Part shown: piece by piece, positions 5,960 through 57,115 of the stretch
Layout: every line of letters starts with the position of its first letter
Position numbering within the stretch: the first letter of the stretch is position 1
Source: Lamellibrachia columna
Taxonomy: Eukaryota > Annelida > Polychaeta > Sabellida > Siboglinidae
DNA length: 64,000 nt
Reading direction: 5' to 3'
Assembly (NCBI GenBank): GCA_963662155.1
Contig: OY759270.1
Location: 11,421,426 to 11,485,425 of the forward strand
The notes under the pieces: model-generated
What the model saw: the letters and a program-made list of their open reading frames with translations, nothing else
What the model was told of the DNA's origin: nothing
Database searches by the model: none
Translations under genes and position numbers: made by a program

Positions 5960-6496
5960 TCAAAGCACACTATATATGGCATGAGCCGAAATGACTGTTC
6001 TTAGAATTCCACCACTTAGATATTCGTTACTGTCGTGGGCTTCCATCATGGTTGTTGGGGTTGTAGACACCATAGTGATGAGTAACAGCAGCACAGCCGC
6101 AAAGGCACACTGAAAATTAGTCACAGGAATGAAGTAGATACATTTTTTACAAACGTCTAAATAGTGAACTTAACCAACTTTTTACATGATATTACAATGC
6201 AGCAAAATGATAAAATTGTTGAGCAACTCAACATATTTTGGGAAACATATTTTTTTACAATTTTGTAATTCATACATAGTGGGTACTGTTAGAATGAAAC
6301 CACATAATATTTCATAGTTTGGTACAAATCTGTTTCCCGTTAACCGATTCAATCCCATAATATGCACATAATTTATACATGATCTGGTTATGTCAGATAT
6401 CAAAGTAGGTGCGTGAATATCAGGAAGAGAATATTGTAAGCTTTTATATCAGTAAGAAATGCACACGAGCTGCAATACCAATGGATGAATGTTCAT
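5960..6496 (-). CDS. P1: secreted peptide sharing the family signal exon but without cysteines (candidate)
   Basis: The last exon is 6109 down to 5960, opening right after a ttttcag acceptor (CAG at 6112-6110). It encodes 49 residues: a family-type signal segment (CAFAAVLLLLITMVSTT) and then a mature part with no cysteine after the first residue, ending at TGA. The other members have the six-cysteine region here. A possible first exon is 6496-6479 (ATG plus five codons, then GTATTG); it is preceded by aaat as in P8 and would leave a 369-bp phase-0 intron. The donor is weak. The first exon of P2 at 8.9 kb could also serve. The right-hand copy (15.6 kb) is frameshifted and lacks 15 bp at the candidate first exon. 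P1 may be a non-cysteine peptide or a gene losing function. Confidence 0.45.
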
Positions 6497-6499
6497 ATT

Positions 6500-7756
6500 T
6501 GAAATACATTGTATTCCTCTCTGATGCTCTCCAAATGCTTCAAATGTACCACTGCACTTAGTGTTTTCTACAAGACTAAGTATACAGTACGCCGTAACAA
6601 ATTGTTAGGATTAGGAGACAGTATGTTCTTGTAAATGTACAGTTGACACCATTTTTTGACTGTTCGATGTCAGATAGAGAACACATGAGATGGCGCCACC
6701 ATCTCATAAACAACGCTGGTTTAAAGTGTAAAGTCCGAGTTGGTTTGGGTCAACCATTCGTGATTACCAAGTGTTTAAAACTATTTACTGTATTTGATCT
6801 AATAAGCATGCAGTATATTTGACAAAAATTTGGGCCATGTAAAAAGGAATCAGTTCTTATCAGTGTGCACCAACATTTTTCCTCTGGACAATAAAGTAAC
6901 TGTTTAACACTAGTGGTGTCATTTGGTGACTAACAAACTGTTTAACACTAGTGGTGTCATTTGGTGACTAGTGCAGAATAACTGAAAAGTGGTGCCAACT
7001 GTTTAACACCAGATGGTAACATTTCAGTTGTTCCACACTAGTCAAATAAAACAATTATGGATCCTGCTGATTAAAAAAGGGGGTGTGCATTAATTAGGAC
7101 ATGTATGCTTAATAGGTCGAATACAGTATGTGTCAAACATTGGACACAAATTAGGATTAAGGTACTTTTAGGTGGCCAAATGGCATTCCAAATTTAATCA
7201 GTTGCTATCACACATTGTGCTTCTTGATAACAATGGTGGCCGACGCAATTTGGAGCGCTATTTGGGCTGCTAATTGCCCTAAAAGTCAATGTTTGATCAG
7301 AATATACATATACTCTTTGTGAACCTCAAGCTATGAGGTGTGATGGTTTAAGCTGTAATGATTTTGGTTTTTAAAGGAGTACCATGTGCTTATTATGATA
7401 AATATGTACTTTAAAAAAACAAAGGTGATTTTGCACAACCTCATGCCAGAGCCCGTCATAACTTGTTGTTAAATCGTTCTCTGTCTGTTCTGTCTTTCTA
7501 CAATTATGCTAAACGTCAGTGGTATATCTAGCATCTCGCAAACGGAGAGACCAAAGAGGGGCCAAGTCTATTCACCCATTAGTTAACCATGCCTGCATTT
7601 GCTGCAAACTGAATTAGTAAAAGTCTACAGAAAAAAGAACATACTTCCGTCATACTTCCGTTCGCTATTTAAATTCACTATATCATAGTCTTACTGTAAT
7701 GTCTGTTATACCAACCGAGTTGATCTGGTGTGTGTTGTTTCATCATGGCGTCCGTG
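6500..7756. other. Intergenic between P1 and P2, no gene seen
   Basis: Conserved in the right duplication copy (16140-17247). It contains a direct repeat of about 40 bp, actgtttaacactagtggtg, at about 6898 and 6940. No coding frame persists in both copies. Confidence 0.45.
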
Positions 7757-8948
7757 CTAATTCCACAAATTGCAAAGCTCACTGCAATCTCGATTGAACC
7801 TTTCGCAGGCGAGTGAAGACGGGAATTTTTTTATGCAAACCAAATTTTGCTCCTTGCACTGTTCTAAGCAGGCAAGACGTTTTGGGCTTGGCTGCTCTGT
7901 GGTGATAACTGGAGAAGTTGACACCATGGTGGTGAATAGCAGCATCAGGGCAGCAACGGCATGCTGAAATATTATAATATTGGCTGCTGCTTTGGCTTCT
8001 CAGGTGTCAACATAATCAGTGTGAACAATAGCTTGGCCATAATTATAGAACATTAGAACAATATAAGTCATGGTTTTGGGGGCAATGCACCTCAAGGAGT
8101 TAAAAAGCTAATAATTTGCAACTACAGTCAAGAATATCATGCTAGTGTTTTTTTCTGAATTTGTTCTAAAAATGGGAGATTCTGGTCAGATCTCGATTAC
8201 ACTGGGGGCTGACATGTTTATTGGATGACCAATAAATTCCTGGCAGTTCTAAGAAATCAACTTCTGGTTGAGACATGTGCCTTAAGTGTGTTTGACCGAA
8301 ATCGAACAGCCGTCAGAAGCAACACAAACTCTCAATCAAACTAGCTGCTATGTCAGAACGAGAGAAGTTTAGTAAACAAAGGCCAAAGTATGTTGCACAA
8401 GTTGCGTTTAGACGTAAATAACTGTTGGCAAGTATAGAACTAGGTGTTTACGAATAGATTTTCTTTTGGTGAGCGAATGTAGTGTTACGTAACACTAATA
8501 GTATGGCGCGGCCCATGAAATTAAGATGCTGTGTGTTCAACAATGCTTTCCTTGTAAAGAACTGGCGCGATACTTTTGATTGTAATTGCAAATGGTTCTG
8601 TTTTAGTAACTCTTAAAAAACCGTTACTTTCGTTTTACCTTAATTAATAATAAATTTATCTGATGCCATGAGCTAACTGTTCACAGAAACTGTTGTTCTA
8701 TGAACATACATTTTCTGAGAGGGAGCATACCCACACAGGGGTGAATATTACATAGCAATGCCCATGCCCAAAATATCACAATAAAACATTAATATTTCAT
8801 AAACATAAATATAACAAAAAGAATTTGCAATATGAACAACTGTGACAATTCTCAGTGAAAGTTAGTTTTTTTTGCTGTCATGCTTTAATTATTATGATAA
8901 CTATGTTCTATGCCAGAACGTAAGGTTACGTACCACTGCGATCTTCAT
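7757..8948 (-). CDS. P2: small secreted six-cysteine peptide
   Basis: Two coding exons. Exon A is 8948-8934 (ATG AAG ATC GCA GTG, Met-Lys-Ile-Ala-Val), followed by the donor GTACGT. Exon B is 7963-7757, directly after a CAG acceptor (7966-7964), in phase 0. The precursor has 73 residues. Residues 1-22 form a signal peptide with core AALMLLFTTMVST, and a Thr/Pro-rich spacer follows. The mature part has C-x3-C-x6-C, a 9-residue loop (IKKFPSSLA), then C-x6-C-x3-C and a short CNLWN tail. An export role is clear from the signal peptide; the target is unknown. P5 is its duplicate: the signal segment is identical while 10 of about 51 later residues differ. The minus-strand leader just upstream of the ATG follows a pyrimidine-patterned stretch ending in cacag (CAG at 8973-8971), so a 5'-UTR intron is likely. 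Confidence 0.85.
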
Positions 8949-9208
8949 AGTTAGTCTCTAGTTTCGTGTTCTGTGAAGTAAGTAAGTAAGTATGCCAGGT
9001 ATATGCGTCGGCCTATTATAGAGACGAAAACACTGGAAATGGAGAGAAGCACTGGATATGATGAGTGGCTGATTTAGTTCCACTAGGTTAACTTAACCTG
9101 TATCTACAATCTGAGAGACGAAAGTTAAAATGGACTCGCTTGAAGAGTTTCGAGAAATTGCTTCAAACATATCAAGTATATTTGCATGTATTCATGGAGA
9201 GCAATCCA

Positions 9209-55610: not shown

Positions 55611-55611
55611 A

Positions 55612-55815
55612 GATGTTTAACAAGATTGCCATCCAAGACAAAGGCCCAGATGGCAAGTGGACAAGGAAGCCATTGGTTTATCGAGAGTCCAACCATTTTT
55701 CATCTGTGTGTAACCCGCCCTTCTGAGATGTTTGTCAGTTTTGTTTTTAAACATATTCACACTGCTAGCATTTGCACAATTTGTAGAAAATCTGTAGATA
55801 ATCTGTTCCATAAAA
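55612..55815 (-). mobile_element. LINE-A extreme 3' fragment
   Basis: The minus strand reads TNCANASSVNMFKNKTDKHLRR and the same 3' non-coding text (aggaagccattggtttatcg on the plus strand) as the other LINE-A copies. Confidence 0.8.
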
Positions 55816-56194
55816 TAAATGTCTGTAATAAAAGAATTTCTGATAAAATAATTAATTATAAAATTGTGAGTAATGTATAAAATAAATATTTTTTATTCAA
55901 AATAAAGTACTAGATCAAAACAAAATATGTATATTTAAATGCGTTGATGTGGCATAAGAAACGTCGATGAAAATATTTTTATTTATAGTAGATAATCATT
56001 TATTTTCCTCTGAGAACGAGTATGAATACGATCATGAACTACGATCATGAACTACACAGCTGAAATCATTTGTTGTTTTTTGTAATAATGAAATAGAATT
56101 TTTTTTGAGAAATGACATTTTAGTATGCATCTCTTCTGATGGCTGTAAGGTGACCTAGGCCGACCTTCTCTCAAGCCAATACACATCGGCGCCA
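55816..56194. other. P14 3' flank, no gene seen
   Basis: AT-rich, with a direct repeat gatcatgaactac at about 56030 and 56042. No coding frame is supported. Confidence 0.35.
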
Positions 56195-57115
56195 TCAGTA
56201 CTTGTATTTCTCATGGCATCCTTTCAAGCACCATCTGTAGGCATTAGAACAGACTTCTGGCTCGGAGAAACGCAGGGAGAACAACTCCCAATTGTCTCCT
56301 TGACACTTAATGTCATCCCACCGGCACCTCTCAATGCAGACGCAAAGTTCTGTACTTGCACCATCCGTAGTTGACACCGCAGTGAAGAGTAGTAGCAGCA
56401 AAGTTGCAACGGCACACTGAAGTGTAGAAAGGTTGTTTCTTTTGAGAAACTAGTTTGCCATCCAGAACTGAGTGTGTTGGACTAATCGAGTATATATATA
56501 TATATATATATATATATATATATATATATATATTATATATATATATATATGTATATACACACACTAAATTCGATGATAACATATATATATATATATATAT
56601 ATATATATATATATATATATATATATATATATATATATTAAAGTTAAAATATGGTCAAATTAAACAGTTACAGTTAACAATATACAGGTCTGTATATATA
56701 TATATATATATATATATATATATATATATACACACACATGTATATGTATAATTATTATTGAGTGCAATAGCCTTATAAAGCATGTACAATTATTATAGAG
56801 AGCAATAGCCTTATAAAGCTCGAAGCGCTTTACATAATTAATTAATGATAAAATTGCGACAACCATGCAAATCTTCCAGATATTCTTGACTCGCAATATC
56901 AAGAGAGACGTTTTCTATTAAACAGTATACATGTTACAATGAAATCACTGAAGAACATTCCCGGTGTATTTACACCCTCGTTCATCTCATCTAGGACGTG
57001 GTTTTTGTGCCAAATTTCCATCTTTCAACAATGTTTTCTATGGCATGCACAGTTTACTGCAACCTTTATGTGTTATGCATGAACACAGAGTCACACATAC
57101 CGTATAATTCTTCAT
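56195..57115 (-). CDS. P14: small secreted peptide with seven cysteines
   Basis: Exon A is 57115-57101 (Met-Lys-Asn-Tyr-Thr), donor GTATGT. Exon B is 56416-56195 after CAG at 56419-56417, in phase 0; the precursor has 78 residues. The signal core is [16 protein letters not shown]. Like P13 it has an additional cysteine two residues before the first family cysteine ([14 protein letters not shown]). A 17-residue loop, [12 protein letters not shown] and an HEKYKY tail follow. The sequence NWELFSLRF in the loop resembles NWELRDSS of P8. The intron (0.7 kb) holds three (TA)n arrays and a LINE2-like tail. Confidence 0.85.
56490..56552. repeat. (TA)n microsatellite in the P14 intron
   Basis: First of three TA arrays. 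Confidence 0.95.
56580..56640. repeat. (TA)n microsatellite in the P14 intron
   Basis: Second of three TA arrays. Confidence 0.95.
56693..56740. repeat. (TA)n(CA)n microsatellite in the P14 intron
   Basis: Third TA array, ending in a short CA run. Confidence 0.95.
56749..56845 (-). mobile_element. LINE2-like 3' tail, with a tandem copy
   Basis: The minus strand reads tgtaaagcgcttcgagcttt-ataaggctattgc, the usual tail of LINE2-type elements or SINEs that borrow it. A part of about 46 bp, including ataaggctattgc, occurs twice. Confidence 0.6.

What the first reader, a model, noticed from the sequence alone, without database searches (positions are those of the whole stretch)
5960..57115. A minus-strand cluster of about a dozen secreted cysteine-rich peptide genes, family not recognised
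Eleven complete two-exon genes (P2, P3, P5-P9, P11-P14), an orphan last exon (P10), a cysteine-free member (P1), a frameshifted copy (P4) and one relic lie in one direction over 51 kb. Seen directly: the same exon layout, a conserved signal segment and an invariant cysteine frame. From general knowledge: local arrays of short secreted Cys-rich peptides with conserved signals and variable mature parts are typical of defence, venom or mating-signal families. I know no named family with this exact frame, so novelty is an inference.
Basis: partly seen in the sequence, partly recalled or inferred. Interest (0 to 1): 0.88.

Follow-up and report, generated by a model that had tools for sequence, protein, structure and literature searches.

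The report
Tubeworm superfamily of secreted cysteine-rich peptides
A deep-sea tubeworm genome carries a cluster of about a dozen genes for small secreted, disulfide-stapled peptides, apparently one of many such clusters in that genome and without a named family; they may act on bacteria, perhaps the worm's own symbionts, but nothing here tests this.

Summary
Twelve minus-strand last exons share an exact frame, C-x3-C-x6-C-x(9-19)-C-x6-C-x3-C; eleven 15-nt first coding exons were found, with a phase-0 intron inside the signal peptide. The frame occurs nowhere else in the window and in none of 40 simulated windows. Seven genes match hypothetical proteins of the tubeworm Lamellibrachia satsuma (86-97% identical last exons, same gene order); five of those models carry the same tiny first exon, so the host is a close relative.

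Beyond the finding: the window's own genome holds 65 further places (E<=0.01) in 15 clusters or single sites on nine contigs, linked to each other. Of 48 places fetched, 41 hold the same frame; five had a 15-nt first exon. The window's link to them rests on frame, architecture and weak, partly negative profile evidence.

No Pfam family or solved structure matched. The closest printed frame is aphid BCR3, a bacteriocyte-specific antimicrobial peptide with a longer middle loop. Best guess: a disulfide-stapled helical hairpin acting on microbes, perhaps symbionts. That function is inferred: there are no expression data, and the structure prediction never finished.

The parts
7757..7963 (-). P2 last exon (frame 3-6-9-6-3)
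8934..8948 (-). P2 15-nt first coding exon MKIAV
9666..9890 (-). P3 last exon (3-6-15-6-3); LSAT2_025204 71/74 identical
12416..12430 (-). P3 first coding exon MKIAM
17248..17454 (-). P5 last exon (3-6-9-6-3), block copy of P2
18435..18449 (-). P5 first coding exon MKITV
19261..19485 (-). P6 last exon (3-6-15-6-3), block copy of P3; LSAT2_025206 72/74 identical
20633..20647 (-). P6 first coding exon MKIAV (same five residues in LSAT2_025206)
22136..22351 (-). P7 last exon (3-6-10-6-3); LSAT2_025207 67/71 identical
23801..23815 (-). P7 first coding exon MKNSV
25338..25571 (-). P8 last exon (3-6-19-6-3)
27719..27733 (-). P8 first coding exon MNTTG
30540..30764 (-). P9 last exon (3-6-12-6-3); LSAT2_025209 69/74 identical
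34195..34209 (-). P9 first coding exon MKTTG
36813..37022 (-). P10 last exon (3-6-12-6-3), no first exon of its own seen; LSAT2_025210 59/69 identical
38045..38260 (-). P11 last exon (3-6-12-6-3)
43289..43303 (-). first coding exon MKTTG assigned to P11 (possibly also used by P10; inferred)
49342..49548 (-). P12 last exon (3-6-12-6-3)
49882..49896 (-). P12 first coding exon MKTTG
53144..53374 (-). P13 last exon (3-6-18-6-3); matches the second part of LSAT2_025211, 74/76
54259..54273 (-). P13 first coding exon MNSNM (weak score; matched by the MKSNM exon of the C7 paralogue)
56195..56416 (-). P14 last exon (3-6-17-6-3); matches the first part of LSAT2_025211, 52/54
57101..57115 (-). P14 first coding exon MKNYT (weak score; same five residues in LSAT2_025211)
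5960..6169 (-). P1: signal-like exon without the cysteine frame, probably decayed
   Evidence: E 5.4e-6; no first exon assigned
15590..15697 (-). P4: partial copy in the block that duplicates P1-P3
   Evidence: (E 8.6e-4)

Best explanation
A tandem array of secreted, disulfide-stapled peptides, probably one cluster of a large superfamily so far seen only in Lamellibrachia and in unnamed ENA records. Shown by sequence: a signal-like N-terminus split between a 15-nt first coding exon and the last exon, a mature part of about 52-61 residues (cut assumed at residue 16 of the last exon), an invariant C-x3-C-x6-C...C-x6-C-x3-C frame, orthologues in L. satsuma, and growth by block duplication. Inferred: two antiparallel helices joined by three rungs, C1-C6, C2-C5 and C3-C4, because cysteines at i, i+4 and i+11 fall within 40 degrees on one helix face. 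The staple holds the fold while loop and surface vary. The peptides are released by gland, blood or trophosome cells and bind or permeabilise bacteria, controlling intruders and possibly the endosymbionts, as is proposed for the aphid peptide with nearly the same frame (BCR3).
For: Frame and split signal. Five L. satsuma models of the cluster (025204, 025206, 025209, 025210, 025211) carry a five-residue first exon. Genome-wide: 65 further places at E<=0.01 in 15 clusters or single sites on nine contigs; 41 of 48 fetched non-window places with the frame; 15-nt first exons also on C4 (MKLFL), C7 (MKLDL, MRLDR, MKSNM) and C3 (MRLDL). An outside-only profile ranks P8, P10, P12 and P9 first to fourth of 1604 window ORFs, E 0.0014-0.041. 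Helical-wheel angles. BCR3 frame; BCR3 at 5 uM stops E. coli colony formation and raises membrane permeability. Exon copies P2/P5 and P3/P6 have 0 gap openings, against 15 and 11 in adjoining intron and intergenic DNA.
Against: No expression or activity data. Window mature peptides range from -5 to +4 net charge, not uniformly cationic. No clear positive selection. Descent shared with the other clusters is not proven: hhalign of A1 against A4 gives probability 2.4%, E 0.02; an unrelated ORF ties with P9 at E 0.041, P3 comes 26th, and P2, P5 and P7 are not among the 30 listed. No BCR3 sequence was compared, and its middle loop (21-25) is longer than here (9-19). The structure prediction never returned.
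Confidence: 0.45

Rival explanations
1. General epithelial or coelomic defence peptides, aimed at outside microbes and not at the symbiont.
For: Tandem arrays of small Cys-rich secreted peptides are usual for invertebrate defence families (general knowledge); related places on many contigs.
Against: Mixed charge in the window members; no match above cut-off to a Pfam antimicrobial family.
Confidence: 0.25
2. Reproductive or waterborne signalling peptides (pheromone-like, as Aplysia attractin; recalled).
For: Helical Cys-rich signals in lineage-specific families are known in molluscs and ciliates (recalled, not tested).
Against: Very many places, and seven window members are 86-97% identical to their L. 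satsuma counterparts, slower change than I would expect of mate recognition.
Confidence: 0.12
3. Matrix, mucus or tube proteins, or protease inhibitors, in which the disulfide hairpin is structural.
For: Tubeworms secrete tube proteins; a trypsin-inhibitor-like cysteine-rich protein is listed in the Paraescarpia tube table.
Against: No Pfam inhibitor or matrix family matched above cut-off; the peptides are short.
Confidence: 0.12
4. A separate question: the wider superfamily is convergent, and only the window cluster plus its C7 paralogue is one family.
For: Genome searches with P6 and P9 find only window members at E<=0.001; P14 adds only the C7 paralogue; hhalign probability 2.4%; only 11 of the 41 outside family ORFs are among the 60 best listed with the window profile.
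Against: Same frame, 15-nt first exons in five other places, outside-only profile ranks four window members first of 1604 ORFs, and the seven best of 4259 ORFs in the reverse search are family members.
Confidence: 0.3
5. Chance open frames, not genes.
For: No transcript evidence here.
Against: 12 exact frames against none in 40 simulated windows; relatives and independent gene models in L. satsuma.
Confidence: 0.01

Closest known systems
Aphid BCR3 (bacteriocyte-specific cysteine-rich peptide)
   Same: Signal peptide plus short mature part; six cysteines with x3, x6, x6, x3 spacing; restricted to one lineage; the host carries a bacterial endosymbiont.
   Different: Middle loop 21-25 residues against 9-19 here; insect; sequence similarity not tested because its letters were not in the passages read; tubeworm expression unknown.
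Lamellibrachia satsuma hypothetical proteins (LSAT2_025204, 025206, 025207, 025209, 025210, 025211, 024238, 028322)
   Same: Relatives of the window genes, or (028322) of the C4 type; same frame; first exon of five residues in all but the partial 025207.
   Different: Only called hypothetical in the records; one model (025211) fuses two genes and 025207 is partial.
Small Tim / twin CX3C helical hairpin (TIM10)
   Same: CX3C motifs; best PDB profile match. That they staple antiparallel helices is recalled.
   Different: E 0.058, not significant, and the match covers 16 residues; mitochondrial, not secreted, four cysteines (recalled).
Plant alpha-hairpinins (recalled)
   Same: C-x3-C...C-x3-C helical hairpin, secreted, defence.
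   Different: Four cysteines, plants; not tested here.

Membership tests
Aphid BCR3 | Spacing x3, x6 before and x6, x3 after the middle loop | tested here: met
   12 of 12 window members against the frame printed in PMC9604261 Table 3
Aphid BCR3 | Middle loop of 21-25 residues | tested here: not met
   9-19 in the window; 16-18 in the outside members, counted from the frames
Aphid BCR3 | Expressed only in bacteriocytes | not testable with these tools
   No tissue RNA data
Aphid BCR3 | Sequence homology | not tested
   BCR3 letters not in the passages read
Defensins (CS-alpha-beta, beta, big) | Profile match to a defensin family | tested here: not met
   10 of 12 window exons scanned; only a sub-threshold Defensin_big hit, 16.5 bits against cut-off 25, residues 6-29 of P11, which end before its first frame cysteine
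Small Tim / CHCH proteins | Significant match and twin CX3C or CX9C frame without a signal peptide (features recalled) | tested here: not met
   Frame differs and the N-terminus is signal-like; PDB profile E 0.058
Tubeworm superfamily described here | C-x3-C-x6-C...C-x6-C-x3-C | tested here: met
   31 of 31 aligned sequences, which were chosen for the frame; 41 of 48 fetched places outside the window
Tubeworm superfamily described here | 15-nt first coding exon and phase-0 intron inside the signal | tested here: inconclusive
   11 of 12 window genes. Outside, five of eleven loci: L009, L035, L036, L038, L077 (upstream of L028); none in L028, L029, L030, L034, L037, L078. Most other outside loci have flanks too short to tell; several C9-type ORFs have an internal ATG before the signal

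The most novel reading that the evidence does not exclude
Chemosymbiotic tubeworms independently evolved a large set of trophosome peptides, dozens of genes with almost the same six-cysteine staple as aphid BCR3, that police or differentiate their endosymbionts: an animal counterpart of legume NCR peptides.
Probability: 0.22. Interest if true: 0.93.

Novelty: new variant of a known kind. Interest (0 to 1): 0.72.

Why it matters
How gutless tubeworms admit, limit and digest their symbionts is open. The Riftia study looked for antimicrobial peptides among detected host proteins by >75% identity to database entries, which would miss a family like this. The list of places makes one question directly testable: are these genes on in trophosome bacteriocytes?

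Tried and rejected
Rfam and tRNA scans of the window: nothing. Pfam: no family above cut-off for 10 of 12 window exons and five relatives; L020 scored 19 bits against Folate_rec (cut-off 29.8), rejected; NCBIfam was not searched. PDB by sequence: nothing significant. Prokaryote genome collection with P14: 184 pattern matches, none confirmed; the viral collection was never scanned (one search failed). Positive selection: not shown; P9/P10 mature dN/dS 1.77 rests on 2.5 synonymous and 16.5 non-synonymous changes, P13/P14 mature is saturated, P8/P3 (0.15) too diverged. Signal parts are not always the more conserved: dN/dS 1.42 (P10/P11), 1.39 (P11/P12), 1.54 (P13/P14) on few changes. The neutral simulation is only weakly against neutrality: open frame with all cysteines kept 0.11 and 0.09; as few amino-acid changes as seen 0.057 and 0.15; no change in the first 16 residues 0.026 and 0.029. 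Seven fetched places lacked the frame: L039, L042, L045, L046, L048, L049, L051. Structure: job accepted, never finished (last poll), so no fold search. Papers: PMC9604261, PMC6594739, PMC3574423, PMC8476170, PMC6918071, PMC8789280, PMC6862839 and PMC10192322 seen as passages only, all others as listings (one search listed 25 of 82). Searches for a printed description; in those listings and passages I saw none.
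Full report
Observation. Each follows an AG acceptor, usually TTTCAG, in frame with a hydrophobic stretch (CAVAALLLLFTTMVST type) and a mature part with six invariant cysteines. The spacings are 3-6-n-6-3 with n = 9, 15, 9, 15, 10, 19, 12, 12, 12, 12, 18 and 17 for P2, P3 and P5 to P14. A six-frame scan finds this frame 12 times, always in these exons; forty Markov windows give none. Eleven 15-nt coding exons with a conserved donor were found: ten, the eleventh, at 43303, by a weight matrix. 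P13's and P14's exons score low when left out of the matrix; they are backed by a L. satsuma model (MKNYT) and by the MKSNM exon of a paralogue on C7.

Host. The named database relatives are all hypothetical proteins of Lamellibrachia satsuma; the others found are unnamed ENA records. Seven window genes have matches there whose last-exon parts are 86-97% identical (P3, P6, P7, P9, P10, P13, P14). They lie on records of one contig length, and their gene numbers 025204 to 025211 run in the order of the window, which implies conserved synteny (inferred from the numbers). Models 025204, 025206, 025209, 025210 and 025211 begin with five residues of the MKxxx kind joined to the last-exon sequence, so another annotation found the same tiny exon; whether RNA reads support those models I do not know. 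025207 is partial. 025211 looks like a fusion of a P14-like and a P13-like gene. The window is C10:11421426-11485425 of an 879.7-Mb assembly in 30 contigs.

How the array grew. Self-comparison shows most of the first 12.9 kb (P1, P2, P3) repeated in pieces at 12.9-21.1 kb (P4, P5, P6), at 81-92% identity. A second set of block copies carries P9, P10, P11 and P12. P3 and P6 each have their own best match in L. satsuma, so that duplication probably predates the species split. A 20-bp minisatellite lies 3' of P8, P9, P10 and P12. Exon copies P2/P5 and P3/P6 have no gap, while the P2/P5 intron and the DNA upstream of P2/P5 have 15 and 11 gap openings. dN/dS over the last exon is 0.51 and 0.65 for these pairs; the mature part alone gives 0.54 and 0.70. 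This fits weak purifying selection; positive selection is not shown.

Beyond the window. A search of the own genome with P14 gave a close paralogue at C7:14931763 (81%) and weak matches; two of these outside C10, L016 (E 0.22) and L019 (E 0.79), keep the exact cysteine frame. L019 belongs to a very large set: searches with L019, L050 and L041 give 65 distinct places at E<=0.01, in 15 clusters or single sites on nine contigs. These are places, not proven genes; several contain stops or are partial. Of 48 distinct places fetched and scanned, 41 hold the frame (27, 14; 41 of 48); eight of the 41 came from weaker matches, E 0.016-0.22. Forty of the 41 have a seventh cysteine in the middle loop, usually five residues after the third; L070 has six, like the window. 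Further 15-nt first exons occur at L077 (upstream of L028; MKLFL, as in LSAT2_028322), L035, L036, L038 and L009. In the same scan L028, L029, L030, L034, L037 and L078 gave none, and most other loci have short flanks.

Is the window cluster part of that superfamily? Frame and architecture suggest it. Profile evidence is weak and mixed. A profile of the 41 outside cores ranks P8, P10, P12 and P9 first to fourth of 1604 window ORFs (E 0.0014, 0.014, 0.03, 0.041), and eight of the twelve members fall in the top 14; but an unrelated ORF ties with P9, P3 is 26th, and P2, P5 and P7 are not among the 30 listed. In the reverse search the seven best of 4259 ORFs are family members (E 0.023-0.53), yet only 11 of the 41 are among the 60 listed. 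hhalign of two subsets aligns the six cysteines in register but gives a probability of only 2.4%, E 0.02. I hold common descent likely, not proven.

What it is and how it works. The peptides look secreted from the signal anatomy; there is no experiment. Cysteines at i, i+4, i+11 and at j, j+7, j+11 fall within 40 degrees on one face of each helix, which suits an antiparallel helical hairpin with three rungs, C1-C6, C2-C5 and C3-C4. This is inferred; the structure job never finished. Window mature parts are 52-61 residues if the signal ends at residue 16 of the last exon, with net charge -5 to +4. The 11 outside members examined range from -1 to +8.

Comparison. Pfam and PDB give no member family. 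A full-text search for the frame led to the aphid BCR4 paper, whose Table 3 prints BCR3 as CX3CX6CX21-25CX6CX3C. BCR3 is expressed only in bacteriocytes, and synthetic BCR3 at 5 uM stops E. coli colony formation and raises membrane permeability. The tubeworm peptides differ in loop length (9-19), so they are not filed as BCR3. The shared staple in two hosts of intracellular bacteria is a pointed analogy, no more. The tubeworm papers, read as passages, do not mention such a family. The Riftia search for antimicrobial peptides required >75% identity to database entries and so would not be expected to find it.

Verdict. A real family of secreted cysteine-rich peptides that I found no description of, very likely part of a larger superfamily, so far seen only in Lamellibrachia and unnamed ENA records at the sensitivity of the searches used. 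The function most likely concerns microbes, possibly the symbiont, but no evidence here tests that.

Noticed in passing
window 24879-25262, 29739-30150, 36296-36457, 48518-48939: A 20-bp minisatellite (GTGGTACAACATCGCCATTT type) recurs just 3' of P8, P9, P10 and P12, part of the duplicated unit and a possible unequal-exchange site.
   Followed up: partly
window 28280-29011 and 34766-34931: A 21-bp minisatellite, about 35 copies in the larger array, open in several frames on both strands, so long ORFs there are repeat artefacts.
   Followed up: no
window 40251-41159 (-) and 44361-45251 (+): Reverse transcriptase fragments, LINE-like (RVT_1, E 1.4e-6, just below the curated cut-off, and 7.1e-18).
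   Followed up: partly
window 1-12900 and 12900-21100: Large tandem duplication, in pieces, carrying P1-P3 and P4-P6.
   Followed up: yes
L009 (G000:C7:14930263-14933481): Dispersed P14 paralogue with an MKSNM first exon like P13's; probable counterpart of LSAT2_024238.
   Followed up: yes
window 36813-43303: P10 has no first exon of its own, but its L. satsuma counterpart model has MKTTG; the exon at 43303 may serve both P10 and P11 by alternative splicing.
   Followed up: no
L058 (G000:C11:9227539): Family frame inside an unusually long open frame of 409 aa.
   Followed up: no
P0001 (LSAT2_025211), P0008, P0011, P0012: Public gene models of this family are often wrong: an apparent fusion of two genes, or starts placed without the 15-nt first exon.
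   Followed up: partly
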